A DNA stretch of 64,000 nucleotides from Ruminococcus sp. (GTDB lineage: Bacteria; Bacillota; Clostridia; Oscillospirales; Ruminococcaceae), in contig JAGAJO010000006.1 in NCBI GenBank assembly GCA_017626015.1, positions 62,001-126,000 on the forward strand, in the 5' to 3' direction. Position numbers and translations under genes: made by a program. This document shows, piece after piece, positions 33,757-48,595 of the stretch. The stretch's first letter is position 1, and every line of letters begins with the position of its first letter. The notes beneath the pieces were generated by a model, which saw only the letters and a program-made list of their open reading frames with translations, was not told the origin of the DNA and did not search any database.

Positions 33757-33810
33757 AATTTTACACCGCCTTATAATATAGGGGGAGCTACGCCCCCGCT
33801 TTCAGGCGCC

Positions 33811-34896
33811 TCAGAACTTAACGGGATTAGCCGATAGGTATTTCTTGACCATAAGTGCGATCTTAAAGATGATAGCATGGTCAAATTCTCTGAGATCAAG
33901 TCCTGTAAGCTTTTTGATCTTTTCAAGTCTGTACACAAGGGTATTTCTGTGTACGAACAGCTTTCTTGAGGTTTCGGAAACGTTAAGGTTGTTTTCAAAG
34001 AACTTCTGGATAGTGAAAAGCGTTTCGTGATCCAGCGACTCGATAGAGCCTTTCTTGAAGACTTCCTTCAGAAACGTTTCGCAGAGGGTAGTGGGGAGAT
34101 GATATATAAGTCTTGCGATACCCAGATTGTCATATGAAACGATATTCTTGTCGGTATCGAAAACCTTTCCCACTTCAAGAGCGATCTGAGCCTCCTTGAA
34201 GGAACGTGCCAGATCCTTTACTCCCTCGATGACCGTACCTATACCTACGTTCACACGGGTATAGAACTCGCTGGAGAGGGTGTCTGAGATGGAGCGTGCA
34301 AGCTTTTCGAGATCCTTGGATTCAACGCCTGCCGCAACCTCCTTTACAAGCACGATATCAGACTCGGTGATGTTGAACACAAAGTCCTTGTTTTTATCGG
34401 GGAAAAGGTTCTGTATTACGTCGTAAGCCGATACGTCGTTGGAGGAAACTATCCTTATAAGAAGGACCACTCTTGAGATATCCGCACTGAAATGCAGCTC
34501 TCTCGCCTTGACATGGACATCGCCCGGCAGGACGTTATCCAGCACGACATTTTTTATGAAGTTGTTTCTGTCGTATTTTTCGTCGTAGTACTGCTTGATG
34601 CTTGAAAGGGTTATAGCGAGTATGCTGGCGTATTTTGCCGCAACCTCGTCCGTGCCTTCCACAAAAACGGCATAGTCCGGCTTCATATGAGCGCCGAAAG
34701 GCTTATAGGTGTATCCGTCACGTACAAATATATCGTGGGAGTCTCCCAAATCCAGCGATACAAATTCGTTCGTGGTGCCGACCTGTGCCAGCTCCGAGCA
34801 GGCAATAATGGTTGCGGTTTCGTCGATGACGCCGATTACGCAGTCAATTGTGTCACGCATCTGATGAACAACGCTTTGAAATAATCTGTTTGACAT
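33811..34896 (-). CDS. CdaR/PucR-type transcriptional regulator
   Basis: A 361-residue regulator. The C-terminal PucR-type helix-turn-helix is at residues 306-335 (VSETSRKLFVHRNTLVYRLE), preceded by a GGDEF-like regulatory fold (about 140-290) and an N-terminal sensory half. This is the CdaR/PucR layout, whose members respond to sugar acids or purines; the effector here is unknown. It has a good sigma-A promoter and stands between ftsEX and ptsH without obvious metabolic targets. A weak GC hairpin (plus 33780-33797) follows its stop. Confidence 0.88.
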   Translation of the reverse strand: MSNRLFQSVVHQMRDTIDCVIGVIDETATIIACSELAQVGTTNEFVSLDLGDSHDIFVRDGYTYKPFGAHMKPDYAVFVEGTDEVAAKYASILAITLSSIKQYYDEKYDRNNFIKNVVLDNVLPGDVHVKARELHFSADISRVVLLIRIVSSNDVSAYDVIQNLFPDKNKDFVFNITESDIVLVKEVAAGVESKDLEKLARSISDTLSSEFYTRVNVGIGTVIEGVKDLARSFKEAQIALEVGKVFDTDKNIVSYDNLGIARLIYHLPTTLCETFLKEVFKKGSIESLDHETLFTIQKFFENNLNVSETSRKLFVHRNTLVYRLEKIKKLTGLDLREFDHAIIFKIALMVKKYLSANPVKF

Positions 34897-35022
34897 AAGT
34901 TATTCCCCTCTACTTGCAATTATTAACATTTTTTTGACGCAGCCCGCTGTATGCCGCATTTCTGCCGGATATTCCGGACAGACGGGCAGAACCGTTACGG
35001 GGCTATACGTCCGCTTACTATA

Positions 35023-35051
35023 ATTATAACAAAAAATGCTGAATTTTGCAA
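35023..35051 (-). promoter_or_regulatory. Sigma-A promoter of the CdaR-type regulator
   Basis: On minus: TTGCAA (plus 35046-35051), a 17-bp spacer, TATAAT (plus 35023-35028). Confidence 0.85.
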
Positions 35052-35296
35052 GTGTTTTATAGTAAAAAGTGCAAAAAAGCAAAAAAACTTTTTACCGGAC
35101 GATCAGACGGTTACAAATACGCCTAATGTATTACAAATTGTAACATATTTTTTTGCTGAATGTGTGAACATATTGTTAAATTACTTTGCTTATTGTGAAA
35201 TATACACAAAATATGCCAGTATATATTCTACACAGAGTAATCAAATTGTAACTTTTTACTGCATATGCTGTATATTTTATGTATTTTTACAGAAAG

Positions 35297-35326
35297 TAAA
35301 AAAAGACCGCCGCGCTTGCAGCGATC
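35297..35326 (-). terminator. Terminator of ptsH
   Basis: On minus: GATCGCTGC/GCGGCGGTC, a 9-bp stem (two G-U) with an AAGC loop, then a T-run. Confidence 0.88.
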
Positions 35327-35358
35327 CCTTTAACATAAATTATAAAGAAACAGTACGA

Positions 35359-35631
35359 TTATCTGGCATCCTCAGAGAAACCGCTGTCTACGAGATCTAC
35401 AAGACCCTTTACCGCAGCTTCCTCGTCAACGCCGTCAGCGATGATCTTGATAGTCGTGCCGCCGACGATACCCAGCGAAAGAATGCCGAGAAGACTCTTG
35501 GCGTTTACTCTTCTGTCTTCCTTCTCGATCCAGATCGAAGATTTGAATTCGTTTGCCTTCTGGATGAAGAACGTAGCCGGACGAGCGTGAAGACCTACCT
35601 GGTTCTGAACAACAACCGTATTCTGTAACAT
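35359..35631 (-). CDS. ptsH: HPr family phosphocarrier protein
   Basis: A 90-residue cytoplasmic phosphocarrier. The PEP/enzyme I phosphorylation site His15 lies in GLHARPA and the regulatory Ser46 in NAKSLLGI, both at the canonical Gram-positive positions, so it can serve both in sugar transport and in HPr kinase/CcpA catabolite control. It is monocistronic with its own promoter and terminator; no enzyme I, EII or hprK is in the window. GGAGAG precedes ATG. The leader is about 115 nt long. Confidence 0.95.
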   Translation of the reverse strand: MLQNTVVVQNQVGLHARPATFFIQKANEFKSSIWIEKEDRRVNAKSLLGILSLGIVGGTTIKIIADGVDEEAAVKGLVDLVDSGFSEDAR

Positions 35632-35750
35632 AAAAATCTCTCCATTCCAAATATATAAAATACTTCAGATTTTTCAATTAAACAAGGCGTGAGACCATTG
35701 CTTTGACCGTGAGCGTTCAGGTCCTGCTGTCCGTTTAATTTGATAAACAT

Positions 35751-35779
35751 ATTATACCCGACAAAATTCGTTAAGTCAA
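35751..35779 (-). promoter_or_regulatory. Sigma-A promoter of ptsH
   Basis: On minus: TTGACT (plus 35774-35779), a 17-bp spacer, TATAAT (plus 35751-35756). It leaves a leader of about 115 nt. Confidence 0.9.
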
Positions 35780-35920
35780 CGCAAAATTTAAACAAAGCGT
35801 ATTTTACGGCTTGATTTTCGTTCAAAATGACTACAATGGGGCAACAATTGCAATGAATTTTATGCACTGCGACGGAACTTATATCTGTTTTGTATCAGTT
35901 TGTACAAAATCTTTTAACAT

Positions 35921-36688
35921 TTATGGTTGTTCTGACGAGCATTGCGCCCCTTCAACTTCGTCAATTTTCACAGCTTTGTGAATTATAGCCAAATCTTCTT
36001 CCGAAAGATCGGCTCTTTCAAGCAGCTCGGGACGTTTCTTAAGGGTGTTGAGCAATGCCTGCTCGTGTCTCCACCGGAGGATATTTGCGTGATGTCCTGA
36101 CAGCAGAACAGGCGGGACAGTCCTGCCGTGCCAGATCTCGGGGCGGGTATACTGAGGGTATTCAAGCAGACCGCTGTAATGACTTTCGTCCTCGTAGCAG
36201 CCGGGGCGGGAGAGTGTACCCTCCAGCATACGCACTATGCAGTCCACAAGGATAAGGGCGGGCAGCTCGCCTCCGGTAAGAACATAGTCGCCTACGGATA
36301 TTTCCTCGTCCACGATCTCCTCGATGATCCTTTCGTCCACGCCCTCATAGTGCCCGCATAATATAAATATGCTGTCGAGCCGGGAAAGTTCCGCAGCCCG
36401 CTGCTGGGTCAGCGTTTTTCCCTGGGGGGACATATAGATGACATGAGGCTTCGGTCTGCCCTCGGTGACGGCAGTGAAGCAGTTATAGATCGGGTCGCAC
36501 TGCATGAGCATTCCCTTTTGCTCGCTGTACGGGGTATCGTCAACACGGCGGTGCTTATCAAGGGTATAATCTCTTATATTGTGGCAGGCGACCGTGAAAA
36601 TATTCCTTTCCCTTGCTCTTCCCACAACGCTTTGTGAAAGATAATTTTCCAGCATTTCGGGGAAAAGCGTAGCTATATCTATATTCAT
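35921..36688 (-). CDS. trmD: tRNA (guanine-N1)-methyltransferase TrmD
   Basis: A 255-residue SPOUT methyltransferase that makes m1G37 in tRNAs to prevent frameshifting. The N-terminal knot domain has the FILCGHYEGVDERI and SVGDYVLTGGELPA segments (the SAM-binding trefoil knot); the C-terminal helical domain follows a linker (SRPGCYEDESHY...). The length is normal. It overlaps rimM by 4 nt (ATGA), the standard partner in ribosome and tRNA maturation operons; rpsP and rplS are not adjacent here. Confidence 0.97.
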   Translation of the reverse strand: MNIDIATLFPEMLENYLSQSVVGRARERNIFTVACHNIRDYTLDKHRRVDDTPYSEQKGMLMQCDPIYNCFTAVTEGRPKPHVIYMSPQGKTLTQQRAAELSRLDSIFILCGHYEGVDERIIEEIVDEEISVGDYVLTGGELPALILVDCIVRMLEGTLSRPGCYEDESHYSGLLEYPQYTRPEIWHGRTVPPVLLSGHHANILRWRHEQALLNTLKKRPELLERADLSEEDLAIIHKAVKIDEVEGAQCSSEQP

Positions 36689-37203
36689 CTGACTTCCTCC
36701 GTATCGTCGAAAAGCCCTTGAAGGGGAGTTATTTTCATTATCCCGCCGGCTATATCAGTTTCGGCAACCACCTGCGGGATAGCGGGGATATAATAGGTTT
36801 TTCCGTCGCCGCTTTTTATATGGTATACGTCGTTGGCTCCGGTCTGGGAGACCTCGGTAAGCTCTCCGTAGATCCTGCCGCTGTCTGCGTCCACCACACT
36901 GAGACCGATAAGATCCTGCACGAAATAGCAGCCGTCCTCAAGCTCCACATCGTTTCTGTCGATATAAAGTATCCTGTTGCGGAGCTTCTGGGCTTCCTCC
37001 ACAGAATCGACGCCTTTTATTTTCATTACCACAATATTTTTTGCTGTACGGGAGCTTTCGATCTCCACTGCCGTGCCGCTTTTATAATAAAGTGTGTCGA
37101 ATCCGCACAGAAAGTCCGTCGTATCGCACCACGGCTGGACCTTTACCTCGCCTTTAAGACCAAATACGGAAACAATTTTTCCCGCCTCCAGAAATCTGTT
37201 CAT
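36685..37203 (-). CDS. rimM: Ribosome maturation factor RimM
   Basis: A 172-residue protein that assists 30S head assembly by binding S19. N-terminal RimM domain (AGKIVSVFGLKGEVKVQPW) and C-terminal PRC barrel (YFVQDLIGLSVVDAD... and YYIPAIPQVV). GGAGG precedes ATG. It is first in the rimM-trmD unit, with a clear promoter. Confidence 0.96.
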   Translation of the reverse strand: MNRFLEAGKIVSVFGLKGEVKVQPWCDTTDFLCGFDTLYYKSGTAVEIESSRTAKNIVVMKIKGVDSVEEAQKLRNRILYIDRNDVELEDGCYFVQDLIGLSVVDADSGRIYGELTEVSQTGANDVYHIKSGDGKTYYIPAIPQVVAETDIAGGIMKITPLQGLFDDTEEVR

Positions 37204-37236
37204 ATGAACGTTACCTCCGACATTTTTTCTGAATAT

Positions 37237-37265
37237 ATTTTAGCACAACATTTAAAATAAGTCAA
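37237..37265 (-). promoter_or_regulatory. Sigma-A promoter of rimM-trmD
   Basis: On minus: TTGACT (plus 37260-37265), a 17-bp spacer, TAAAAT (plus 37237-37242), 34 bp before the start codon. Confidence 0.86.
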
Positions 37266-37310
37266 ACATGAGTCAAACGGATAAGCAAAAGCACACATAT
37301 TATTGGCTCG

Positions 37311-37548
37311 GGTTGTCAAAAAACTTCACACAACGCCAATAAGGGGCAGCCCTCTATCGCAGGGCTTGCCCCTCTTTTCAAACAGTCCACCGGACTGTTT
37401 GAAAATTCACCCTGTGCGGAGCTCCTGCGTATGGGGGAGTTTCGCTCCTGCGGGAGCGACGAAGGGGCGCTGCCCCCTCGACCCCCGCAAGCGCTCTAGC
37501 GCCGCGCTTGAGCCTGCGCTTTAATTCCCCAAAGGGCTTTTACTACAG
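37311..37548 (+). repeat. Interspersed repeat family A, copy 2 (238 bp)
   Basis: Begins GGTTGTCAAAAAACTTCACA and is collinear with copy 1 (19505-19739), including three identical hairpins and the CCCCGCAAGCGCTCTAG block. Small differences: GGGGAGTTTC versus GGGGATTTC, GAAGGGGCGC versus AAGGGGCTC. It stands between the divergent rimM and carA promoters. A 73-codon frame within it is not a gene. Confidence 0.92.
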
Positions 37549-37620
37549 GCTGAGCATGTATTTTACGAGCCGTGCGGCATCGCCTAAAAAAATGATTTAC
37601 ATAAAAAAGCCGCAAACCTC

Positions 37621-37649
37621 TTTACAAAGGAAAATATTTGTGATATAAT
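37621..37649 (+). promoter_or_regulatory. Sigma-A promoter of carA
   Basis: TTTACA at 37621-37626, a 17-bp spacer, TATAAT at 37644-37649. The leader is short, with no room for a PyrR attenuator. Confidence 0.84.
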
Positions 37650-37690
37650 AGTAAACGTAAAAATTTGCGTAAAAAAAGGAGGAGCTTATA

Positions 37691-38764
37691 GTGCAGAAAG
37701 CATATCTGATTCTGGAAAACGGCACTGTTTTTGAGGGTAAGAGCTTCGGCGCTGTGGGAGAGGCTATCGGTGAAATTGTTTTCACAACGGCTATGACGGG
37801 TTATCTGGAAACTCTTACGGATCCCAGCTATTACGGTCAGATCGTCGTTCAGACATTTCCGCTGATAGGTAATTACGGCGTTATTCCCAGCGATTTTGAA
37901 AGCGGCTGTCCTCACGTTAAAGCTTATATTGTCAGAGATTGGTGTCAAGAGCCCAGCAATTTCCGCTGCGAGGGTGATCTTGACATTTTTTTAAAACAGC
38001 ATAACATCGTCGGTCTGTATGGAATAGACACAAGACAGCTCACAAGGATAGTGAGAGAGCACGGCGTAATGAACGGAAGGATCGTTCCCGAGGGAGCGAG
38101 CTTCGGGCTTACGGACATAAAAAATTATAAGATCGAGGATGCAGTGAAGAACACCACCTGCGACAAGGAAACGGTATATACTCCCGAGGGAGAGGTAAAG
38201 AGAAGGGTAGTGCTTTTTGACTTCGGCGCAAAGGCTAATATCTGCCGCAGCCTTGTACAGAGGGGCTGCGAGGTCACGGTAGTACCGGCTTACACCACCT
38301 GCGATAGAGTGGCAGAGCTTGCTCCGGACGGTATAATGCTTTCCAACGGACCCGGAGATCCGGCGGAAAACGTTGAGATAATCGCCGAGCTTAAAAAGCT
38401 TTCGGAAAAGAAAATACCTACCTTCGGCATCTGTCTGGGACATCAGCTGCTTGCGCTTGCTCACGGGGCGAAGACCCATAAGCTGAAGTACGGTCACAGA
38501 GGAGCCAATCAGCCGGCGGAGAACGTTGAAACGGGACGGGTGTATATAACCTCTCAGAACCACGGCTACGCCGTAGTCAACGAGTCTCTTCCGGAATGTG
38601 CGAAGGTCTCATATATAAATGCCAACGACGGCACCTGCGAGGGCGTAAAGTATTTTAACGAGCCGGCGTTTTCGGTACAGTTTCACCCCGAAGCCTGCGG
38701 CGGACCGCTGGACACGGGATTCCTGTTTGACGAGTTTATCGCAATGATAGACGCAAACAAATAA
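37691..38764 (+). CDS. carA: Carbamoyl-phosphate synthase small (glutaminase) subunit
   Basis: A 357-residue class I amidotransferase subunit that releases ammonia from glutamine and channels it to CarB. The N-terminal CarA domain (about 1-150; the TAMTGYLETLTDPSYYGQI segment) precedes the GATase domain with nucleophile Cys248 in GICLGHQ and the His-Glu pair in VQFHPEA. It starts at GTG 37691, preceded by AAGGAGGAG. The gap to the large-subunit gene is 87 nt and contains an imperfect hairpin (GAGCTT/AAGCTC). Confidence 0.97.
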   Translation: MQKAYLILENGTVFEGKSFGAVGEAIGEIVFTTAMTGYLETLTDPSYYGQIVVQTFPLIGNYGVIPSDFESGCPHVKAYIVRDWCQEPSNFRCEGDLDIFLKQHNIVGLYGIDTRQLTRIVREHGVMNGRIVPEGASFGLTDIKNYKIEDAVKNTTCDKETVYTPEGEVKRRVVLFDFGAKANICRSLVQRGCEVTVVPAYTTCDRVAELAPDGIMLSNGPGDPAENVEIIAELKKLSEKKIPTFGICLGHQLLALAHGAKTHKLKYGHRGANQPAENVETGRVYITSQNHGYAVVNESLPECAKVSYINANDGTCEGVKYFNEPAFSVQFHPEACGGPLDTGFLFDEFIAMIDANK

Positions 38765-38851
38765 GCTACAGGCAGCTCCGGAGAAAAGCGTAGGGGAGCG
38801 TCAGAGCTTCCGTCTCAAGCTCTCCGGTCATACACAGAAAGGAAGAATATC

Positions 38852-41800
38852 ATGCCTTTAAATAAAGATATAAAGCGTGTTCTGGTTATCGGCTCGGGAC
38901 CTATCGTCATCGGTCAGGCGGCGGAGTTTGACTATGCCGGCACCCAGGCATGCCGTGCGCTTAAGCAGGAGGGGCTGGAGGTCATACTCATAAACTCCAA
39001 TCCTGCTACCATTATGACAGATAACGCTATGGCGGATAAAATTTATATAGAGCCGCTTACTCTTGAAACGGTAAAGAGAGTTATCAAAAAGGAACGTCCG
39101 GACAGTCTGCTTTCCACACTCGGAGGTCAGACGGGACTGACCCTTTCCATGCAGCTTGCCAAGGAGGGCTTCCTTGACAGGTATAATGTAAGACTTCTCG
39201 GCGCAAAGCCCGAGACAATCGACAAGGCTGAGGACAGACAGATGTTCAAGGACACTATGGAGTCTATCGGTCAGCCATGCATACCCTCACGGGTAGTAAA
39301 TACCGTCGAGGACGCCGTTAAATTTGCAAACGAGCCGGGAATAGGCTATCCGCTTATTATAAGACCCGCTTTTACACTCGGCGGAACGGGCGGAGGTATA
39401 GTTAATAACGAGGAAGAGCTTACCGACATCACAAGAAACGGTCTTTATCTTTCACCTATCACGCAGGTGCTTGTTGAAAAGTGCATTGCAGGCTGGAAGG
39501 AGATCGAGTTCGAGGTAATGAGAGACGCCAAGGGCAACGTTATCACCGTATGCTCAATGGAAAACTTCGATCCTGTGGGAGTGCATACCGGCGACTCGAT
39601 AGTTATTGCACCTGCGGTCACACTTGCGGATAAGGAATATCAGATGCTGCGTTCGGCGGCGCTGAAGATAATAGATACGCTGGAGGTAGAGGGCGGCTGT
39701 AACTGCCAGTTCGCTCTTAATCCCGACAGCTTTGAGTATGCCGTTATCGAGGTAAACCCCAGAGTTTCACGTTCGTCTGCGCTGGCATCCAAAGCGACAG
39801 GCTATCCGATCGCAAAGGTTGCGGCTCAGATCGCTATAGGATACACCCTTGACGAGATCAAAAACGCCGTTACAGGCAAGACCTACGCCTGCTTCGAGCC
39901 TGCGCTGGACTACGTTGTTGTCAAGCTGCCGAAGTGGCCCTTCGACAAATTCGTATATGCAAAAAGAGATCTCGGTACGCAGATGAAGGCTACCGGAGAG
40001 GTCATGTCTATCGGCACGACCTTTGAACAGGCTATCATGAAGGCTGTAAGAGGCGCAGAGATAGGTCACGACTGCCTTATTTCTCCGAAAATGCTGGATC
40101 TTGACGACGAAACTATCCGTTCAAGGCTGCATAATTGTACCGACGAGAGACTTTTCGTGGTCTACGAGGCTCTCAGGAGAGGCTTTGCGGTAGAGGAGAT
40201 CCACGAGATAACCAAAATAGACGAGTGGTTCCTCTGCAAGCTCTGCAAGCTTATAGACATGGAAAGAGAGCTTGCAAAGGGAGATTTCAGCCGTGAGACC
40301 TATATACAGGCAAAGAAGCTGGGCTATACGGATAAGGTTATAGAGAGGATCTCCGGAAAGCCGGTCAAGGATCCCGCTCATGCCGTATTTAAAATGGTAG
40401 ATACCTGCGCTGCGGAGTTTTCGGCTCAGACGCCATACTTTTATTCTACATACGATTCGGAGGACGAGGCTGCGGAATTTATCTCGGCTCACGGACGGGG
40501 CAGCTCCCGCAAGGGAACGGTGATAGTTTTCGGCTCGGGTCCTATAAGGATCGGCCAGGGTATAGAGTTCGACTATGCTTCGGTACACTGCGTATGGGCG
40601 CTTAAGGAGCATGGCTATGAGGTAGTTATCGTAAACAACAACCCCGAGACTGTTTCGACAGACTTCGACACTGCGGACAGACTTTACTTCGAGCCTCTTA
40701 CCAACGAGGACGTTATGAATATCATCCGTGTGGAAAAGCCGGTGGGCGTCGTGGTGGCTTTCGGCGGACAGACGGCTATAAAGCTGACAAAGCACTTAAA
40801 CGAGCAGGGAGTAAGGATCCTCGGCACTCCGCCCGATTCAATTGACGCTGCGGAGGACAGGGAGAGATTTGACGAGCTGCTGGAGCAGCTTAAGATCAAG
40901 CGTCCCGAGGGCTTTACGGTCATGACTGCCGACGAGGCTCTTACGATAGCCAACAGGATACATTATCCCGTGCTTATGAGGCCCTCATACGTTCTCGGCG
41001 GACAGAATATGATAATCGCCTTCAACGATGACGATATAAAGGAGTACATGGAGATAATCCTTTCTCAGGGAATAGAAAATCCTGTGCTTATTGACAAGTA
41101 CCTTATGGGTACAGAGCTGGAAATAGACGCTATATGCGACGGCGAGGATATTCTTATCCCCGGTATTATGGAGCATATCGAAAGAACGGGTATCCATTCC
41201 GGAGACTCTATTGCGGTCTATCCCGCATGGAACGTTTCGGACAGACTTATCAGCAGGATCATCGACTGCTCAAAGAGACTGGCTATCGCACTTAATACAA
41301 AGGGTCTGGTAAATATCCAGTATATCGCATATAAAGAGGAGATCTACGTTATCGAGGTAAATCCCCGCTCTTCAAGGACTATCCCGTACATCTCAAAGGT
41401 AACGGGAGTTCCTATGGTGGATCTTGCCACAAAGTGTATGCTCGGCGAAAAGCTGAGAGACATGGGCTACGGCACGGGACTTTACAGAAATTCTCCCTAT
41501 GTTGCGGTCAAGGTACCGGTGTTCTCCTTTGAAAAGCTTATAGGCGTGGACAATCATCTGGGACCTGAGATGAAGTCTACCGGAGAGGTGCTGGCGGTAT
41601 CAAGCTCGCTGGAGGAGTCGCTGTATAAGGGACTTACTGCTGCAGGCTACAAGCTGGACGCCAAGGGCGGAGTTTTCATAACGGTAAGAGACGCCGACAA
41701 GGCTGAGATACCTCAGACCGCTAAAATGTTTGCGGATCTCGGCTTTAAGATATACGCTACCCACGGCACTGCAAACGTGCTTCACGAGCACGGCATAGAG

Positions 41801-42919
41801 GCTGAGACCGTTGCAAAGATCCACGAGGACGAAAAGAACAATACCCTTACGCTTATCGAGAGCGGAAAGATATCATATGTTATCTCAACGTCCTCAAAGG
41901 GAAGGATCCCCACAAGAGATTCGGTAAAGATAAGACGTAAGACGGTGGAGTGGAATATCCCGTGCCTTACCTCTATAGATACCGCAAACGCCATTGCAGC
42001 CTCCATCAGGAGCAGATATACAGAGTCAACTACGGAAATAGTGGATATCAATAACATGAGAAGCGAAAAGCAGACCTATAAATTCACCAAGATGCAGGGC
42101 TGCGGAAACGACTATATCTACTTTAACTGCTTCGATCAGAGAATAGACAACCCCGAGGGCTTTGCCCTTAACCTTTCCGACAGACACTTCGGCATCGGCG
42201 GTGACGGCGTGATACTTATCTGCCGCTCAAAGGTCGCAGACGCAAAGATGAAGATGTACAATCTTGACGGCTCCGAAGGAAAAATGTGCGGAAACGGCAT
42301 AAGATGCGTGGCTAAGTTCATGCGTGACAACGGACTTGTAAACAGAGACGAGATGACTATTGAAACTCTGTCGGGTCTTATCAAGGTATCGCTGAGCCGT
42401 CATTACGGCGAGGTGAACGGAGCTACCGTTGATATGGGAAAGGCTATCCTCGATCCCAGACTTATACCTGTTGATCTGCCGGAGGACGAAAACGGCAGGG
42501 TCTCGGACAGAGAGGTAAGCATCGGCGGAAAGAATTACAGGATCACCTGCGTATCTATGGGAAATCCTCATGCGGTCGTATTCATGAACAATGTTGATTC
42601 CCTGGACATCGACAGTATCGGTCCTGAGTTCGAGTACGACAAGATCTTCCCGGAGAGGGTCAATGCCGAGTTTATAAAGGTGATAGACGAGCATACTCTT
42701 AAGATGAGAGTGTGGGAGAGAGGCTCGGGCGAGACCTTTGCCTGCGGAACGGGAGCCTGCGCTGCGGTAGTTGCAGCGGTACTCAACGGCTACTGTAAGA
42801 AGGACGAGGAGATCTCGGTGATCCTTAAGGGCGGAACCCTTAAGATCAGGTATACCGACGAGGCTGTTTACCTTACAGGCGATGCGGTAACGGTATTCTC
42901 GGGCGAGATCAGGATCTGA
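38852..42919 (+). CDS. carB-dapF: CarB-DapF fusion: carbamoyl-phosphate synthase large subunit + diaminopimelate epimerase
   Basis: One uninterrupted frame of 1355 codons. Residues 1-1068 are a full-length CarB: two ATP-grasp halves (IGSGPIVIGQAAEFDYAG near the N-terminus and FGSGPIRIGQGIEFDYAS at about 560) and a C-terminal MGS-like allosteric domain. Residues 1069-1355 are a complete DapF, starting with the typical YKFTKMQGCGNDYIY. It has both catalytic cysteines: Cys1146 in MCGNGIRC and Cys1298 in FACGTGACA. The fusion would make carbamoyl phosphate (arginine, pyrimidines) and convert LL- to meso-diaminopimelate. At the junction an ATG at 42056 lies in ATGA; no convincing ribosome site precedes it. 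The next gene, dapL, makes the DapF substrate. AAAGGAAG precedes the CarB start. Confidence 0.93.
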   Translation: MPLNKDIKRVLVIGSGPIVIGQAAEFDYAGTQACRALKQEGLEVILINSNPATIMTDNAMADKIYIEPLTLETVKRVIKKERPDSLLSTLGGQTGLTLSMQLAKEGFLDRYNVRLLGAKPETIDKAEDRQMFKDTMESIGQPCIPSRVVNTVEDAVKFANEPGIGYPLIIRPAFTLGGTGGGIVNNEEELTDITRNGLYLSPITQVLVEKCIAGWKEIEFEVMRDAKGNVITVCSMENFDPVGVHTGDSIVIAPAVTLADKEYQMLRSAALKIIDTLEVEGGCNCQFALNPDSFEYAVIEVNPRVSRSSALASKATGYPIAKVAAQIAIGYTLDEIKNAVTGKTYACFEPALDYVVVKLPKWPFDKFVYAKRDLGTQMKATGEVMSIGTTFEQAIMKAVRGAEIGHDCLISPKMLDLDDETIRSRLHNCTDERLFVVYEALRRGFAVEEIHEITKIDEWFLCKLCKLIDMERELAKGDFSRETYIQAKKLGYTDKVIERISGKPVKDPAHAVFKMVDTCAAEFSAQTPYFYSTYDSEDEAAEFISAHGRGSSRKGTVIVFGSGPIRIGQGIEFDYASVHCVWALKEHGYEVVIVNNNPETVSTDFDTADRLYFEPLTNEDVMNIIRVEKPVGVVVAFGGQTAIKLTKHLNEQGVRILGTPPDSIDAAEDRERFDELLEQLKIKRPEGFTVMTADEALTIANRIHYPVLMRPSYVLGGQNMIIAFNDDDIKEYMEIILSQGIENPVLIDKYLMGTELEIDAICDGEDILIPGIMEHIERTGIHSGDSIAVYPAWNVSDRLISRIIDCSKRLAIALNTKGLVNIQYIAYKEEIYVIEVNPRSSRTIPYISKVTGVPMVDLATKCMLGEKLRDMGYGTGLYRNSPYVAVKVPVFSFEKLIGVDNHLGPEMKSTGEVLAVSSSLEESLYKGLTAAGYKLDAKGGVFITVRDADKAEIPQTAKMFADLGFKIYATHGTANVLHEHGIEAETVAKIHEDEKNNTLTLIESGKISYVISTSSKGRIPTRDSVKIRRKTVEWNIPCLTSIDTANAIAASIRSRYTESTTEIVDINNMRSEKQTYKFTKMQGCGNDYIYFNCFDQRIDNPEGFALNLSDRHFGIGGDGVILICRSKVADAKMKMYNLDGSEGKMCGNGIRCVAKFMRDNGLVNRDEMTIETLSGLIKVSLSRHYGEVNGATVDMGKAILDPRLIPVDLPEDENGRVSDREVSIGGKNYRITCVSMGNPHAVVFMNNVDSLDIDSIGPEFEYDKIFPERVNAEFIKVIDEHTLKMRVWERGSGETFACGTGACAAVVAAVLNGYCKKDEEISVILKGGTLKIRYTDEAVYLTGDAVTVFSGEIRI

Positions 42920-42949
42920 CCTCTCTCGGAAGCTTCCGGGGAGGTCCGC
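42917..42949 (+). other. Inverted repeat between carB-dapF and dapL
   Basis: GACCTC(T)CTCGGAAG with CTTCCGGGGAGGTC. There is no T-run, so it is more likely a processing or stabilising hairpin than a terminator. Confidence 0.6.
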
Positions 42950-42977
42950 TGAAATAATTAAAAAGGAGAAAAAATCA

Positions 42978-44183
42978 ATGGCACAGATAAACGAGAATTT
43001 TCTCAGGCTGGAAAAGAATTATCTTTTCATAAACATCGCAAAGAAGCTCAACGCATTCAAGGAGGCTCACCCTGATGCCGACATCATTAAAATGGGCATC
43101 GGAGACGTTACCCAGCCTATTGCAAAGTGCGTTGTTGAGGCTATGAAAAAGGGCGCAGACGAAATGGGCGTGAAGGAGACCTTCAGGGGCTACGAGGACA
43201 GCGGAGCAGGCTATGATTTCCTGAGAGAGGCTGTTTCCGGATATTATAAGAGCTTCGGAGTGGACATTCCTGCCGACGATATAAGAATAAATGACGGAGC
43301 AAAGTCCGACTGCGGAAATATTGTGGATATTTTCGGAGACGACAACATTGTGCTTGTTACCGATCCCGCATATCCGGTTTATGTGGATACAAACGTTATG
43401 AGCGGAAGAAAGGTCATCTACGCCGATTCAAACGAGGAGAACGGATTTGCGGCAATGCCGGACGAGAACGTAAAGTGCGATCTTATCTATCTTTGTTCCC
43501 CCAACAACCCTACCGGTTCGGTCTATACTAAGGAGCAGCTGAAGGTATGGATAGACTATGCAAAGAAGAATAATGCGGTAATTATTTACGATTCGGCTTA
43601 TGAGGCGTTTATCACGGAGGATAACATACCCAGAAGCATTTTTGCCGTTGAGGGCGCCAAGGAGTGTGCCATCGAAATGTGTTCGCTTTCCAAGACAGCG
43701 GGCTTTACCGGCATGAGATGCGGTTATACGGTAGTTCCTCACGAGCTTATGGCTAAGGCGAGCGACGGTACGGAGGTATCGCTGGCTCAGCTGTGGGGCA
43801 GACGTGAGGGAAGCAAATTCAACGGAGTTTCCTATCCTGTGCAGTGTGCTGCCGCTGCGGTATTCACACCGGAGGGTCAGGAGCAGATAAAGGAAAACAT
43901 CAGATATTACCAGCACAACGCAAAGGTGATATCTGCTGCCTTCGACGAGATCGGTATTAAGTATACGGGCGGAAAAAATTCGCCGTATATATGGTTCAAG
44001 TGTCCGGACGGCATGGGTTCATGGGAGTTCTTTGACTTCCTGCTGGAGAACGCCAATGTTGTGGGAACTCCCGGAGAGGGCTTCGGCAAAAACGGAGAGG
44101 GCTGGTTCAGGCTTACGGCTTTCGGCGACAGAGACAGGACAGTTGAGGCTATGGAAAGGATAAAAAAGCTTCTGGCAAAATAA
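42978..44183 (+). CDS. dapL: LL-diaminopimelate aminotransferase
   Basis: A 401-residue fold-type I PLP aminotransferase that turns tetrahydrodipicolinate directly into LL-diaminopimelate, bypassing the acylated intermediates. The PLP lysine is Lys239 in SLSKTAGFTGMRCG; the CSPNNPTG motif is near 175; the N-terminus NYLFINIAKK is diagnostic of DapL. It lies 58 nt after the CarB-DapF gene, so the next enzyme of the same pathway (DapF) is encoded directly upstream. AAAAGGAG precedes ATG. Confidence 0.97.
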   Translation: MAQINENFLRLEKNYLFINIAKKLNAFKEAHPDADIIKMGIGDVTQPIAKCVVEAMKKGADEMGVKETFRGYEDSGAGYDFLREAVSGYYKSFGVDIPADDIRINDGAKSDCGNIVDIFGDDNIVLVTDPAYPVYVDTNVMSGRKVIYADSNEENGFAAMPDENVKCDLIYLCSPNNPTGSVYTKEQLKVWIDYAKKNNAVIIYDSAYEAFITEDNIPRSIFAVEGAKECAIEMCSLSKTAGFTGMRCGYTVVPHELMAKASDGTEVSLAQLWGRREGSKFNGVSYPVQCAAAAVFTPEGQEQIKENIRYYQHNAKVISAAFDEIGIKYTGGKNSPYIWFKCPDGMGSWEFFDFLLENANVVGTPGEGFGKNGEGWFRLTAFGDRDRTVEAMERIKKLLAK

Positions 44184-44201
44184 TAGCATGAGATAAAACG
44201 G

Positions 44202-44237
44202 TCGGGAGGGCAAAAAATTGCTCTCCCGATTTTTGTT
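44202..44237 (+). terminator. Terminator of the car-dap unit
   Basis: TCGGGAG(G)GC / GC(T)CTCCCGA stem around an A-rich loop, then TTTTTG. Confidence 0.9.
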
Positions 44238-44315
44238 TTCAGTAAGCGGGTTTTGAATTAATAACGCAGGATAATAATACTTTTAATATGATATGAATAA
44301 ATTTTCAAATAACTA

Positions 44316-44344
44316 TTGACAAGTTAAGCGATTAGTGATAAAAT
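44316..44344 (+). promoter_or_regulatory. Sigma-A promoter of the small DivIVA-like gene
   Basis: TTGACA at 44316-44321, a 17-bp spacer, TAAAAT at 44339-44344. Confidence 0.88.
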
Positions 44345-44372
44345 AAATATATATCAAAAAGGGGGAGTAAAA

Positions 44373-44642
44373 ATGGTAAGCAGTTTCAAGCCGTGTTTTT
44401 TCGGAGGGTATAATAAGCTTGACGCCCTTAACGCTATAGACGGACTTACTCAGGAAATATATCAGCTGGAAAATTCTCTGAGCCGGAAGGAACAGGGAAA
44501 ATCCTACGGCATTCCCCCTAAAGCCCCTCAGACCGATATACGGAAAGCTGCATGGGGAGGCTTTGACAAGGACGATGTCGATGCGTTCATTTCGGATCTG
44601 CGCGGCAGGTCGGAGGAGCTGAGAGCCAAGCTCGGCGAATGA
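44373..44642 (+). CDS. Small protein with two DivIVA-like N-terminal motifs
   Basis: An 89-residue protein made of two similar halves. Residues 5-35 (PCFFGGYNKLDALNAIDGLT...) and 58-88 (AAWGGFDKDDVDAFISDLRG...) both show the pattern G-G-Y/F-x-K-x-D-(A/V)-(L/D)-(N/A), a short helix, then Leu. This resembles the membrane-binding start of DivIVA/GpsB/Wag31 (F-x-x-GY-x-x-x-x-V-D-x-F-L), but there is no long coiled coil. Its own strong promoter and AAGGGGGAG make it a real gene. A role in cell-pole or division-site binding is only inference. Confidence 0.75.
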   Translation: MVSSFKPCFFGGYNKLDALNAIDGLTQEIYQLENSLSRKEQGKSYGIPPKAPQTDIRKAAWGGFDKDDVDAFISDLRGRSEELRAKLGE

Positions 44643-44809
44643 ACGCTCCCGGTTTAAATGATAAGGGAAAGCGCTCTGCAAACGTCTGGATCTTATGTGA
44701 TCCGGCAGGAAGCAGGGTGTTTTTTGCGTTATTGGCGGTTATACTGCGTGAAAGCGTGGGGCGATAAATCAGAGCGGTTAAATTTGTGCAAAATGCCATA
44801 CATTTAAAT
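44643..44809. other. Intergenic stretch without recognisable features
   Basis: About 170 bp with no gene, clear terminator or repeat. A small GGATC/GATCC hairpin near 44687-44702 lacks a T-run. Confidence 0.5.
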
Positions 44810-44838
44810 TTGCATTTTCGGATAAAATGTTGTATAAT
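44810..44838 (+). promoter_or_regulatory. Promoter of the MraY-like/lipid unit
   Basis: TTGCAT at 44810-44815, a 17-bp spacer, TATAAT at 44833-44838. Confidence 0.8.
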
Positions 44839-44876
44839 AATATAGTGTATTTATATTTATTAAAAGGAAGATGACA

Positions 44877-45908
44877 ATGATCTATAAATTTCTGTGCGAA
44901 AAGGGACTCTACATACTTATGGACAACGGAAATGCAGCCGTTTCATCGGAGTATGCCAAAAGATATTCGCTGTTTCTGTTCCTTATGATACTCAGCTCCT
45001 TTGCGCTGACCTTTATTGTGCTTAAGACACTTAAGGGTATGCTCCCAAGGGATCAGGGACGTCAGTTCGCCGTGAACGGAGAGCTGTCCGAGGGTAAGCC
45101 GAGGGGCTGCGGAATGCTGTTTATAACAGCGTTCACCCTTTGCTGTGCGCTGTTTATCCCGCTGGAAATAGAAAGCATCATTTACCTTGTGTGCATTTAC
45201 GGCGCTATGCTTACCGGGTATCTGGACGACGCTGCGAAAAAGCCCTGGGGAAATCTCAAAAAGGGACTTTTCGATCTGGTCATCTCTCTGGGCGCAGCGT
45301 TTACCTACTATCATTTCAACGGCTCGGATATACGTGTGCTGCTTTTCGGAATAGATACTCTGCACATTCCCGCTGTACTGTTTATTGTTCTTGCTGGGGT
45401 ACTGGTATGGACCTCCATTAACGTTACCAACTGCTCCGACGGAGTTGACGGACTTTGCAGCACTCTTGTAATGGTGGTGCTGATATCCATGATGCTTATG
45501 CCGGGACTCCTTAAAGGCGCCTTTGCAAGCCTGTCGGCTATCGTTATGATTGGCGTGCTGGCGGCTTATCTGTGGTTTAACTGCCACCCCAGCAAAATGC
45601 TTATGGGCGACGCCGGATCGAGAGCGCTGGGTGTGCTGCTGGCAATACTGTTCCTTGAAAGCAAGGCGCCGTTCAGCTTTATACCTATGTGTATCGTGAT
45701 AATCCTCGACGGCGGACTGGGACTCCTGAAGCTTTCCTTCAGACGCTTTCTCAAGTGGAAAAATTTTATGGAAAAGATCCGCACACCCCTTCACGATCAT
45801 GCAAGAAAGAACAAGAAATGGTCGGATACTCAGGTCGTTACAAGATTTGCTGTCATTCAGCTTGTAGTGGATCTGTGTTATATGGCTGCGGTCAACTGGA
45901 CCGTTTGA
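44877..45908 (+). CDS. MraY-like phospho-sugar transferase (glycosyltransferase family 4)
   Basis: A 343-residue polytopic membrane enzyme of the polyprenyl-phosphate phosphosugar transferase superfamily. Motifs in order: LPRDQGRQFAVNG (like the MraY PREDGP loop), GYLDD, NVTNCSDGVDGL, a GDAGSRALG loop, and PLHDHARKNKKWSDTQVV. The last is the MraY hallmark, where the usual HHH triad reads HDH. It may be the organism's MraY (UDP-MurNAc-pentapeptide to undecaprenyl phosphate) or a relative that uses another nucleotide sugar. It is not in a division/cell-wall cluster, which supports a divergent role. The start is the second ATG (44877), 8 nt from AAAAGGA. Confidence 0.8.
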   Translation: MIYKFLCEKGLYILMDNGNAAVSSEYAKRYSLFLFLMILSSFALTFIVLKTLKGMLPRDQGRQFAVNGELSEGKPRGCGMLFITAFTLCCALFIPLEIESIIYLVCIYGAMLTGYLDDAAKKPWGNLKKGLFDLVISLGAAFTYYHFNGSDIRVLLFGIDTLHIPAVLFIVLAGVLVWTSINVTNCSDGVDGLCSTLVMVVLISMMLMPGLLKGAFASLSAIVMIGVLAAYLWFNCHPSKMLMGDAGSRALGVLLAILFLESKAPFSFIPMCIVIILDGGLGLLKLSFRRFLKWKNFMEKIRTPLHDHARKNKKWSDTQVVTRFAVIQLVVDLCYMAAVNWTV

Positions 45909-45942
45909 TGAAAGTGTTATGTGATAGCTCAATTCTCCGGGA

Positions 45943-47028
45943 GTGAGGAAAATCAAAAAAAGTTTAAAATATATATTAAACGTGGGCTTTATTGCACTTA
46001 TCTGCTGGCTCACCTTCCGTCTGCTGTTTTCGGGACAGGAATTTTCTCAGATAATTTCCGATCTCCGCATAGCGGACAAGCGCTGGCTTGCCGCAGGCGC
46101 TGTGCTGACATTTATGTTTGTTTCGGGCGAGTCGTGGGTAATTTACTATATGCTCGGTCTGTTCGGGCAGAAAACACGTTTTTGCAGGTGCCTGAAATAT
46201 TCGTTTATCGGATTCTTCTTCAGCTATATAACCCCGTCCTCCTCAGGCGGACAGCCCGCCCAGATGTATTATATGAAAAAGGACGGCATAAAGATCGGTT
46301 TTTCCACGCTGATAATGCTTGTTATAACGGTAGCGTACAAATCGGTGCTGGTAATACTGGGCGGTGTGTTCCTGATCTTTAATTTTGATTATGTAAGGCT
46401 CCACATGGGGGGAGTAGGCTGGCTGCTTACGCTGGGATTTTTTCTTAACGCAGCCTTTATTGCAGCGCTTGCATTTATTTTCTTCAAGCCCTCATGGGCG
46501 AGGAAAATGGGTATAAGGCTTGTGAATTTTCTCACGGGACGTAAGCTTGTTAAGCCTAAAAACAACGAGAAATATGTTTCAAAGATCACGAGGATCTGCG
46601 ATACGTACACCATGGGGACAAGCTATATCAAGGAAAATCTTCACACGGTGCTGAATGTGTTTATTATAACCGTTGTGCAGCGTCTTTCGCTGTTTGCCGT
46701 GACGTGGGCGGTATATAAGTCCTACGGGCTGAGCGGCGCAAGCCTTGCAGAGATCGTCTGCCTTCAGGTAATGGTGGCTGTTTCCGTTGAAATGCTTCCT
46801 CTGCCGGGAGCTGCCGGCATCACCGAGGGCTGCTTTGTGTTTGTTTTCGACAAAATTTTCGGCAGTGGGTTTGTTAAGCCTGCGCTGCTTCTTTCAAGAG
46901 GTCTTACCTTTTACGCTGTCCTAATTGTGGGCGGCATAGTGACGCTTGCAGCGCATATTCTGGTTGTGCGCAGCGATAAGAAAATGCTTTCTCCGGATAA
47001 TAATACGGGGAACAGATCAGATAAATAA
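45943..47028 (+). CDS. Flippase-like membrane protein (UPF0104/LPG synthase TM domain)
   Basis: A 361-residue protein with about eight TM segments of the lysylphosphatidylglycerol-synthase TM (UPF0104) family. Typical motifs are FFFSYITPSSSGGQPAQMYY and EMLPLPGAAGITEG. Such stand-alone domains are often called flippases, but the substrate is not known. It starts at a GTG with a close CGGGAG; the site is poor, so low or coupled translation is likely. It lies 34 nt after the MraY-like gene and 20 nt before pssA, so it belongs to a membrane-lipid unit. Confidence 0.85.
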   Translation: MRKIKKSLKYILNVGFIALICWLTFRLLFSGQEFSQIISDLRIADKRWLAAGAVLTFMFVSGESWVIYYMLGLFGQKTRFCRCLKYSFIGFFFSYITPSSSGGQPAQMYYMKKDGIKIGFSTLIMLVITVAYKSVLVILGGVFLIFNFDYVRLHMGGVGWLLTLGFFLNAAFIAALAFIFFKPSWARKMGIRLVNFLTGRKLVKPKNNEKYVSKITRICDTYTMGTSYIKENLHTVLNVFIITVVQRLSLFAVTWAVYKSYGLSGASLAEIVCLQVMVAVSVEMLPLPGAAGITEGCFVFVFDKIFGSGFVKPALLLSRGLTFYAVLIVGGIVTLAAHILVVRSDKKMLSPDNNTGNRSDK

Positions 47029-47048
47029 AAAGGGACGGGAATTTTAAA

Positions 47049-47678
47049 ATGATCGGTTTTTATAATTATTCGGTAATACTTACATATATAGGACTGCTGT
47101 CTTCGGTGTTCGGGATCACCCAGATCATTGAGGGCAACGAGTCGCTGGCTTTCCTTTGTCTGCTGCTGTCGGGAATATGCGATCTGTTTGACGGAAGGAT
47201 CGCCAGAAGCATGAAAAACCGTACGGAGCATGAGAAGGTGTTCGGTATACAGATCGATTCGCTCTGCGATCTCGTCTGCTTCGGAGTTTTTCCGGCGGTA
47301 ATAGGCTATCATTATCAGTCGGTCTATCCTATGAGGCTGGTTTCCTCGCTGCTTATCGTGCTTTGCGCAGTTATAAGGCTGGGCTATTTTAACGTCATGG
47401 AGGAGGAAAGGCAGCGCAATACCACGGAAAACCGCAAGGAATATCAGGGGCTGCCGGTAACTACGGTGGCAATTATCCTGCCGCTTATATATCTTGGTAA
47501 GCATAACATTCCCGAGGCGGCTTTTCCCTATGTTTTTCAGGGCTTTATGATACTGGTATCAGTATTGTTCATTATGAGGATAAACGTGAAAAAGCTGTCC
47601 ATGAAGGGAATACTGATACTTTTTACAATGGGAACTCTTATTCTTCTGGGGTATCTGAAGGTAAATCATATTATTTAA
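47049..47678 (+). CDS. pssA: CDP-diacylglycerol-serine O-phosphatidyltransferase
   Basis: A 209-residue integral membrane CDP-alcohol phosphatidyltransferase that makes phosphatidylserine from CDP-diacylglycerol and serine. The family signature D-x2-DG-x2-AR-x8-G-x3-D-x3-D is complete: CDLFDGRIAR, then FGIQIDSLCD. About six TM segments. It is directly followed by the decarboxylase gene, which settles the serine rather than glycerol phosphate assignment. GGGACGGG precedes ATG. Confidence 0.93.
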   Translation: MIGFYNYSVILTYIGLLSSVFGITQIIEGNESLAFLCLLLSGICDLFDGRIARSMKNRTEHEKVFGIQIDSLCDLVCFGVFPAVIGYHYQSVYPMRLVSSLLIVLCAVIRLGYFNVMEEERQRNTTENRKEYQGLPVTTVAIILPLIYLGKHNIPEAAFPYVFQGFMILVSVLFIMRINVKKLSMKGILILFTMGTLILLGYLKVNHII

Positions 47679-47691
47679 GGGGGAGTGCGCA

Positions 47692-48564
47692 GTGAAATAC
47701 AGGGACAGACAGGGCAGAGAATACAGGATCGACACAAAGCAGGACGAGTTCCTCGCCGCCGCTTACGATTCTTCAATAGGAAGGGGACTTATGAAATTCC
47801 TTTCTCTGCCGATATTCTCAAGGTGCGCAGAAAAGATTTTAAACAGCAGGCTTTCAGCCGGTTTTATCGGCGGCTTTGCTGAAAGAAACGGTATAGATAT
47901 GTTCGATTACGAGCAGAAGGAGTATGTATCCTTCAATGACTTTTTCACAAGGAGGATAAAGCCGGGCAGACGCTGGGTAAACGATAACAGCGGCGTTCTG
48001 GTATCTCCGGCGGACGGAAAGGTTTCAGCATATGAGATAACAAATTCAAATATTTTTGTGGTGAAAAATTCTGTTTACAGTGTTGAAAGTCTTTTGAGAG
48101 ACAAAAAGCTTGCCGGGAAATATATGGGCGGCTACGCTGTCATTATCCGCCTTTCGGTGGACGATTATCACCGTTATATCTACCCCGCAGACGGAGTAAA
48201 AAGTCACGACAGGCATATCAAAGGCTTTCTCCATACGGTCAATCCTGTGGTAAACAGATATCTTCCTTTATACAAGGAAAATTCCCGCAGCTACTGTATG
48301 CTGAGAACGGAGCGTTTCGGAGACGTTATCCAGATGGAGGTGGGAGCGCTCCTGGTGGGGAAGATAACCAATAAGCAGCCGCAGGGAAAGGTAAGGGTAC
48401 ACAAGGGCGAAGAAAAAGGGTACTTTGAATTTGGCGGTTCCACGATCATTCTGCTGCTTGAAAAGGATAAAGCGCAGGTATGCCCCGACTTGCTGAAAAA
48501 CACGTCGGAGGGCTATGAGACCAAGGTCAGACAGGGTGAAGCGCTGGCGGAGGTCCGCAGATAA
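47692..48564 (+). CDS. psd: Phosphatidylserine decarboxylase proenzyme
   Basis: A 290-residue self-processing pyruvoyl enzyme that converts phosphatidylserine to phosphatidylethanolamine. The cleavage motif is FGGSTI near the C-terminus (the Ser becomes the pyruvoyl group); SFNDFFTRRIKPG, SPADGK and DDYHRYIYP are the other conserved blocks. It starts at GTG 47692 after AAGGGGGAG, 13 nt after pssA. The pair shows that this bacterium can make phosphatidylethanolamine. Confidence 0.95.
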   Translation: MKYRDRQGREYRIDTKQDEFLAAAYDSSIGRGLMKFLSLPIFSRCAEKILNSRLSAGFIGGFAERNGIDMFDYEQKEYVSFNDFFTRRIKPGRRWVNDNSGVLVSPADGKVSAYEITNSNIFVVKNSVYSVESLLRDKKLAGKYMGGYAVIIRLSVDDYHRYIYPADGVKSHDRHIKGFLHTVNPVVNRYLPLYKENSRSYCMLRTERFGDVIQMEVGALLVGKITNKQPQGKVRVHKGEEKGYFEFGGSTIILLLEKDKAQVCPDLLKNTSEGYETKVRQGEALAEVRR

Positions 48565-48595
48565 TACGCTATGATTTAGGAGGTTTCTCTGCAAA

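What the first reader, a model, noticed from the sequence alone, without database searches (positions are those of the whole stretch)
38852..42919. In-frame CarB-DapF fusion joining arginine/pyrimidine and meso-DAP synthesis
Seen: one 1355-codon frame covers a full CarB (residues 1-1068) and a full DapF (1069-1355), with both epimerase cysteines (1146, 1298) and both CarB ATP-grasp halves intact. Known: CarB is the ammonia- and ATP-using large subunit of carbamoyl-phosphate synthase; DapF is normally a free homodimer that makes meso-DAP. I know of no described bifunctional protein of this kind. Inference: tethering could couple carbamoyl phosphate supply to wall precursor and lysine supply, or merely fix stoichiometry. 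CarB forms large oligomers, so DapF dimerisation would add a new contact.
Basis: partly seen in the sequence, partly recalled or inferred. Interest (0 to 1): 0.85.

Follow-up and report, generated by a model that had tools for sequence, protein, structure and literature searches.

The report
Carbamoyl-phosphate synthase fused to DAP epimerase
A gut-type bacterium makes one long protein that joins the enzyme starting arginine and pyrimidine synthesis to the enzyme making a cell-wall and lysine building block; the same fusion is found in many relatives, and in a good part of them the second half has lost a catalytic residue yet is kept, which suggests it may act as a sensor.

Summary
The 1355-residue CarB-DapF frame is real. 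In its own 99.5%-complete genome it is the only CarB and only DapF found, and DAP dehydrogenase (Ddh) was not found. It is fused in 27 of 29 genus genomes and 80 of 80 loci kept from a named-genome scan. A CarB tree puts 85 fused rows in one clade with one nested separate CarB: one fusion, occasional splits. The join has fixed length (16 residues in 140 of 143) and no ribosome site for a free DapF. New: 43 of 144 fused DapFs lost the first catalytic cysteine (13 changes on the tree), as did 8 of 8 further Treponema fusions; 24 of 24 free DapFs keep it. Of the 43, 34 keep all nine other residues tested. 39 of 43 genomes carry a second DapF or Ddh. So the domain seems kept for more than epimerisation; most likely a ligand-responsive module on CarB's allosteric end, bifunctional here. 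That step is inferred. Against: one fused copy (G301) lost the pocket; four Treponema genomes show no other route; the link to backup is not significant by independent pairs; constraint on cysteine-less domains is somewhat relaxed.

The parts
37621..37649 (+). predicted promoter of the operon (TTTACA-17-TATAAT, extended -10)
   Evidence: consensus scan only, 11 of 12 matches; 17 promoter-like sites in the region against 8.6 in shuffles
37691..38764 (+). carA, carbamoyl-phosphate synthase small subunit (glutaminase)
   Evidence: NF009475 471.5 bits and TIGR01368 451.5 bits
38852..42919 (+). carB-dapF fusion gene, 1355 aa
38852..42031 (+). CarB part, residues 1-1060
   Evidence: NF003671 match to residues 1-1060
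41651..42031 (+). CarB C-terminal allosteric (MGS) domain; K950, T970, T973, K989 align with E. coli K954, T974, T977, K993
   Evidence: alignment to 1bxr; T977 and K993 as UMP residues from PMC6245113; the roles of K954 and T974 are recalled
42035..42082 (+). junction EIVDINNMRSEKQTYK; ELVDIN-to-FTKM spacing is 16 residues in 140 of the 143 fused proteins where both motifs were found (144 in all)
42056..42916 (+). DapF part, residues 1069-1355
   Evidence: TIGR00652 residues 1077-1353
42287..42289 (+). codon of Cys1146 (first catalytic Cys, Cys73 of E. coli DapF)
42743..42745 (+). codon of Cys1298 (second catalytic Cys, Cys217)
42978..44183 (+). dapL, LL-diaminopimelate aminotransferase, which makes the substrate of DapF
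   Evidence: TIGR03542 514.2 bits, cut-off 364.7
44200..44231 (+). terminator-like hairpin behind dapL
   Evidence: 14-pair stem then T-run, the longest of 6 sites in the scan; 6 sites are not more than the 6.8 expected in shuffles

Best explanation
An old gene fusion put a full DapF onto the C-terminal allosteric end of CarB through a short junction of fixed length. In the window organism (a Ruminococcus-like clostridium, judged by its nearest named relatives) the protein is made as one chain, probably from a carA - carB-dapF - dapL operon, and by gene content is the only CPS large subunit and the only DAP epimerase found, so both halves should be active. The fusion is probably kept because the DapF domain, which closes on its ligand, acts as a ligand-responsive module on CPS: binding of LL-/meso-DAP (or, in some lineages, another diamino acid) shifts the adjoining allosteric domain and tunes carbamoyl-phosphate output to cell-wall/lysine precursor status. 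Where another meso-DAP route exists the first catalytic cysteine is often lost and the domain persists. Shown: fusion, one clade, fixed junction, only copy found, recurrent cysteine loss with pocket mostly retained, purifying selection. Inferred: ligand binding by cysteine-less forms and any effect on CPS.
For: Only copy found in G000: the other CarB match is a 24%-identity ATP-grasp hit; one PF01678 gene; no Ddh; DapB present. Fused CarBs form one clade on CarB columns, 85 fused rows plus one nested separate CarB, 2 label changes (FastTree). Junction spacing 16 residues in 140 of 143. No internal start: 0 of 116 ATG-bearing junctions have an SD core of 4 nt or more and 27 of 143 have Leu codons there, against 19 of 24 free DapFs with such a core. 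Cys73 lost in 43 of 144 fused, 0 of 24 free; 13 changes on the CarB tree; 8 of 8 Treponema fusions among the 12 loci fetched lost it, with a complete pocket, and the 4 free ones kept it. 34 of 43 keep N11, N64, N75, N157, N190, E208, R209, C217 and T219; in 38 dereplicated rows these are 0.87-1.00 conserved against a median of 0.68 per position. dN/dS of cysteine-less DapF pairs 0.02-0.20 in the 8 of 11 pairs that gave a value, 7 of them at 0.02-0.07; intact pairs 0.02-0.07 in 7 of 8. Literature: single Cys-to-Ala mutants of C. glutamicum DapF are almost inactive and DapF closes on DAP (PMC5296763 passages); E. coli DapF activates RppH without catalysis (PMC4227774 passages); CPS effectors bind the C-terminal domain (PMC6245113 passages; PMC4655335 abstract).
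Against: No structure, binding or activity data; structure prediction was off. L180 (G301) is fused with a normal junction but has lost most of the pocket (S, V, F, A, P, N at N11, N157, N190, E208, R209, C217), and L147 partly; 9 of the 43 lack at least one of the nine residues. Cysteine-less domains are somewhat relaxed: 23 of 76 otherwise conserved positions (Cys73 included) are weakened and mean pairwise identity is 0.54 against 0.63. Four Treponema genomes with Cys73 lost show no other DapF and no Ddh yet have DapB, so either a route was missed or the domain still works. Cysteine loss versus backup: 39 of 43 against 22 of 35 genomes, Fisher p 0.005, but not significant by independent pairs (median p 0.5); one of the 39 (G324) rests on a second DapF with an internal stop. 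CarB's own nucleotide-site residues are mostly kept in intact fusions, so no new regulator is needed. CarB can live without the domain (L182).
Confidence: 0.5

Rival explanations
1. Plain bifunctional enzyme: the fusion only co-expresses the two activities at 1:1, with no cross-talk.
For: First cysteine present in the window and in 101 of 144 fused; dapL lies next door; the reactions share no intermediate (established biochemistry). Outside the fused clade G172 has dapF, dapL, carA and carB on one strand within about 6.5 kb, so a simple joining of neighbours is plausible. Splits occur: L182 CarB, L151 DapF.
Against: The domain persists with most of its pocket after losing a catalytic cysteine on many branches and in 8 of 8 fetched Treponema fusions; junction length is nearly invariant.
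Confidence: 0.25
2. Structural module: DapF dimerisation adds or replaces an oligomer contact of CPS, and ligand is irrelevant.
For: L180 keeps the fused domain without its pocket. Six of 80 named fused CarBs have a shortened oligomerisation-domain stretch (26-36 residues where the window has 60).
Against: 34 of 43 cysteine-less domains keep all nine other residues tested, which a pure scaffold would not need.
Confidence: 0.15
3. Cys73-less fused DapF still catalyses something with the remaining cysteine (slow epimerisation or a one-base elimination), so it is a changed enzyme rather than a sensor.
For: Cys217 kept in 42 of 43; four Treponema genomes show no other DapF and no Ddh but have DapB.
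Against: Single Cys-to-Ala mutants of C. glutamicum DapF are almost inactive (PMC5296763 passages); Spirochaetales walls use L-ornithine (PMC3726837 passages), so wall synthesis there need not have meso-DAP; 39 of 43 genomes carry a second DapF or Ddh.
Confidence: 0.1

Closest known systems
CarB, carbamoyl-phosphate synthase large subunit (TIGR01369 / NF003671)
   Same: Whole domain order; residues aligned with E. coli K954, T974, T977 and K993 present; carA adjacent.
   Different: Carries a full DapF on its C-terminal allosteric end; E. coli CarB ends there (1073 residues).
DapF, diaminopimelate epimerase (TIGR00652)
   Same: Both cysteines and all tested pocket residues in the window copy; dapL next door.
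   Different: Not free; no start site of its own seen; in 43 of 144 fused relatives the first cysteine is gone.
E. coli DapF as RppH activator (PMC4227774, passages)
   Same: A DapF that regulates another enzyme independently of catalysis.
   Different: Free protein acting in trans on an mRNA pyrophosphohydrolase; not fused.
Human CPS1 with N-acetylglutamate (PMC4655335, abstract)
   Same: CPS switched by an amino-acid-like effector through its C-terminal domain.
   Different: Effector binds the native domain; no appended enzyme.
NF038284 bifunctional DapF/glutamate racemase
   Same: A named bifunctional DapF.
   Different: 115.1 bits against a cut-off of 350: the window protein is not in this family.

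Membership tests
CarB (glutamine-hydrolysing CPS large subunit) | full-length match above curated cut-off | tested here: met
   TIGR01369 1463.8 bits against 1027; NF003671 1508.5 against 599
CarB (glutamine-hydrolysing CPS large subunit) | two pre-ATP-grasp/ATP-grasp units, oligomerisation and MGS domains | tested here: met
   PF25596 two stretches, PF02786 two stretches, PF02787, PF02142
CarB (glutamine-hydrolysing CPS large subunit) | partner CarA glutaminase | tested here: met
   adjacent carA 37691-38764
CarB (glutamine-hydrolysing CPS large subunit) | carbamoyl-phosphate synthesis | not testable with these tools
   needs an assay
DapF (diaminopimelate epimerase) | match above curated cut-off over the whole length | tested here: met
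   TIGR00652 284.9 bits against 114.65, profile 2-268 of 270
DapF (diaminopimelate epimerase) | two catalytic cysteines | tested here: met
   Cys1146 and Cys1298 in the window; the first is missing in 43 of 144 fused relatives
DapF (diaminopimelate epimerase) | DAP-binding residues (N11, N64, N75, N157, N190, E208, R209, T219) | tested here: met
   all present in the window; roles from the C. glutamicum mutants in PMC5296763, matched to this numbering by motif
DapF (diaminopimelate epimerase) | homodimer | not testable with these tools
Bifunctional DapF/glutamate racemase (NF038284) | score above cut-off 350 | tested here: not met
   115.1 bits
Ligand-sensing regulatory pseudoenzyme | catalytic residue lost with ligand pocket retained | tested here: inconclusive
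   not so in the window copy; met in 34 of 43 Cys73-less relatives, not met in L180
Ligand-sensing regulatory pseudoenzyme | ligand alters partner activity | not testable with these tools
   needs kinetics

The most novel reading that the evidence does not exclude
A diaminopimelate epimerase was captured once as an added, DAP-reading regulatory domain of carbamoyl-phosphate synthase: bifunctional where it is the only epimerase, and turned many times into a catalytically dead DAP (or diamino-acid) sensor that ties pyrimidine/arginine supply to cell-wall precursor supply.
Probability: 0.4. Interest if true: 0.85.

Novelty: new variant of a known kind. Interest (0 to 1): 0.7.

Why it matters
If right, CPS, a textbook allosteric enzyme at the branch of arginine and pyrimidine synthesis, has in a large group of gut and rumen bacteria a further input from the cell-wall/lysine pathway; UDP-sugars and meso-DAP meet in the same wall precursor. 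It would also be a case of an enzyme repeatedly turned into a sensor after fusion, with intact, cysteine-less and decayed stages in public genomes. Even read conservatively, one protein that appears to be the only source of two basic activities is a notable trap for annotation.

Tried and rejected
Assembly or frameshift artefact: rejected. Internal start making a free DapF: rejected as a general feature; that comparison favours free genes somewhat, because the best candidate start within 25 residues was taken for them. Origin from neighbours: of the 23 separate DapF loci fetched, none shows carB in the fetched stretch (some clipped by contig ends), 21 show dapL and 2 show carA; but G172, whose CarB lies outside the fused clade, has dapF, dapL, carA and carB in a row, so fusion of neighbours remains plausible. 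Pathway of the fused CPS from the neighbours of the second CarB in two genus genomes (10 of the 18 frames listed were scanned): uninformative (an asparagine synthase beside one, a metal ATPase near the other). ARG-box pattern: 2 hits, neither before carA, 0.69 expected; Rfam: none in 33000-49000 at E 0.5. Replacement of CarB's own nucleotide site by DapF: not supported; in 46 intact fusions K950 stays in 45, T970 in 46, K989 in 46 and T973 in 39. Among 38 Cys73-less forms K950 stays in 28 and K989 in 27, and 12 rows of one tree region have Tyr at 1012 (Gly at 1014 and His at 1028 also number 12).

Rows dropped or doubled: the 144 fused proteins include genomes held in two collections (L119 with L073, L120 with L090, L010 with L032, L019 with L033 share coordinates). 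Trees used 84 fused rows dereplicated at 90% from 139 of over 1250 residues; L173, L180, L196, L198 and L199 were left out of the separate CarBs, L180 being put back as fused; L180 is not among the 144. The list was cut, so class counts are lower bounds: 38 of 293 genomes (35 whole, G037 and G068 cut by contig ends, G140 with CarB in two frames but an intact junction), plus G301 found, in 19 of at least 74 families. Ddh was sought in 78 genomes; the lists behind one search were typed by hand. Weak Ddh matches (G037, G061, G133, G195, G322) were not counted as Ddh.

Papers: PMC4227774, PMC5296763, PMC6245113, PMC3726837 and PMC8142540 seen as passages (the last not used); PMC4655335 as abstract and outline; others only as search listings.
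Full report
What is there. The frame 38852-42919 (+) encodes 1355 residues without a stop. Residues 1-1060 match the CarB models and 1077-1353 the DapF model, each far above the curated cut-off, with the expected domains. carA lies upstream and dapL, LL-diaminopimelate aminotransferase, downstream. A promoter-like site at 37621-37649 and a 14-pair terminator-like hairpin at 44200-44231 would frame carA - carB-dapF - dapL as one operon; these are consensus matches, and terminator-like sites are no more frequent here than in shuffles (6 against 6.8).

It is not an artefact. In the genus, 24 of 29 genomes have the whole fusion and 3 more have it cut by a contig end; G027 has the pieces on different contigs at 70% completeness and G007 showed only another CarB. 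A scan of named genomes kept its best 80 loci and all 80 are fused in frame, among them Ruminococcus albus KH2T6, Sporobacter termitidis DSM 10068 and Treponema sp. C6A8. In a sample of 293 genomes of the class at least 39 are fused, in 19 of at least 74 families (list truncated). In a sample of 59 genomes of the genus of Treponema sp. C6A8, 34 have a DapF match and 25 of these lie in frames of 1309-1501 codons.

In the window's genome (99.48% complete) the fusion is the only CarB found (the next match is a distant ATP-grasp protein) and the only DapF found; DAP dehydrogenase was not found and DapB is present. So the protein should supply both carbamoyl phosphate and meso-DAP. Most other genus genomes carry a second, separate CarB of 44-55% identity.

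One origin, fixed join. On a tree from CarB columns alone (FastTree) 85 fused rows form one clade with one nested separate CarB, L182, whose frame still ends in YLVDINH. The DapF tree (IQ-TREE quick) is weaker, with 29 of 105 inner branches starred; it places 7 of 24 free DapFs inside the fused group. One of these, L151, starts with a relic of the junction (KNMREARMKLEFTKMQ); L152 and L153 sit directly behind carA with no carB between. The junction keeps 16 residues between ELVDIN and FTKM in 140 of 143 cases. Five of the seven separate CarBs nearest the clade (L172, L174, L175, L176, L179) end in a similar '(V/I)DI(T/N)' tail, so the join added only a few residues. Outside the clade G172 has dapF, dapL, carA and carB in a row, which suggests how the two genes came together. 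At the junction Met, 0 of 116 have an SD core of 4 nt and 27 of 143 have a Leu codon instead: one chain is made.

The surprise. In 43 of 144 fused DapFs (38 of 84 dereplicated) the first catalytic cysteine (Cys73; window 1146) is Gly, Ala, Ser or Phe; in 24 of 24 free DapFs it is Cys. Of 12 further Treponema loci fetched, 8 of 8 fused have Ala with the full pocket and 4 of 4 free have Cys. On the CarB tree the state changes 13 times (84 rows, 38 lost). Of the 43, 34 keep all nine other residues tested; in dereplicated rows these stay at 0.87-1.00 against a median of 0.68 per position. The domain is still somewhat relaxed: 23 of 76 positions conserved elsewhere (Cys73 included) are weakened. 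dN/dS of such domains is 0.02-0.20 in 8 of 11 pairs with a value, 7 of them at 0.02-0.07, like intact pairs; several dS are near saturation. Single Cys-to-Ala mutants of C. glutamicum DapF are almost inactive, the retained residues are those that hold DAP, and DapF closes on it (PMC5296763 passages).

Context of the loss. A second DapF or Ddh is present in 39 of 43 genomes with the cysteine lost and in 22 of 35 with it kept (Fisher p 0.005, but independent pairs give no significance, so kinship may explain it; one of the 39, G324, has a second DapF with an internal stop). The four without are Treponema-labelled; the order Spirochaetales uses L-ornithine in its wall (PMC3726837 passages), yet these genomes have DapB, so their lysine route is unexplained.

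How it probably works. CPS effectors bind the C-terminal domain of CarB (PMC6245113 passages), and in human CPS1 a ligand there changes both distant phosphorylation domains (PMC4655335 abstract). A DapF that closes on ligand, attached to that domain at fixed distance, is well placed to transmit a signal. E. coli DapF already activates another enzyme, RppH, without catalysis (PMC4227774 passages). I therefore favour a bifunctional enzyme whose second half also reports ligand to the first, turning into a pure sensor where catalysis is covered elsewhere. The transmission step is inference. L180, fused but with a ruined pocket, shows that at least one lineage keeps the domain without DAP binding, which favours a structural role there. 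CarB's UMP-site residues mostly remain in intact fusions and are less constant in Cys73-less ones.

Verdict. Both parts are known families; the architecture, its breadth and the recurrent cysteine loss were not found in print (open-licence PMC papers only).

Noticed in passing
L180 (G301): A fused CarB-DapF whose DapF pocket is ruined (N11, N157, N190, E208, R209 and both cysteines replaced) while frame and junction are kept.
   Followed up: partly
L152, L153 (G116, G262): carA followed directly by a free dapF, with carB found elsewhere; L152 has no ATG, GTG or TTG before FTKM in the dapF frame. Looks like loss of the carB part from a former fusion.
   Followed up: partly
L183 / G172 contig C39: dapF, dapL, carA and carB in a row, all separate, in a genome whose CarB lies outside the fused clade.
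   Followed up: partly
L085, L098, L103, L106, L097: The fusion appears in Treponema-labelled genomes in two separate places of the tree and in one Fibrobacterota MAG, which suggests horizontal transfer (binning errors possible for MAGs).
   Followed up: partly
L090, L091, L097, L106, L109, L110: Six of 80 fused CarBs have a shortened stretch of the oligomerisation domain (26-36 residues where the window has 60).
   Followed up: partly
G330, G341, G400: Genomes with two long, fused-type DapF frames.
   Followed up: no
L161, L163, L165, L166, L167: Free DapFs of one family with GN(C/S)YIY in place of the usual GNDYIY.
   Followed up: no
G256: Same family as the window, estimated 100% complete, no PF01678 match at all, and a separate CarB that is the nearest outside the fused clade.
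   Followed up: partly
window:44871-45905: MraY-like protein well below the mraY cut-off (83 against 192 bits), with pssA-like and phosphatidylserine decarboxylase-like genes further down.
   Followed up: no
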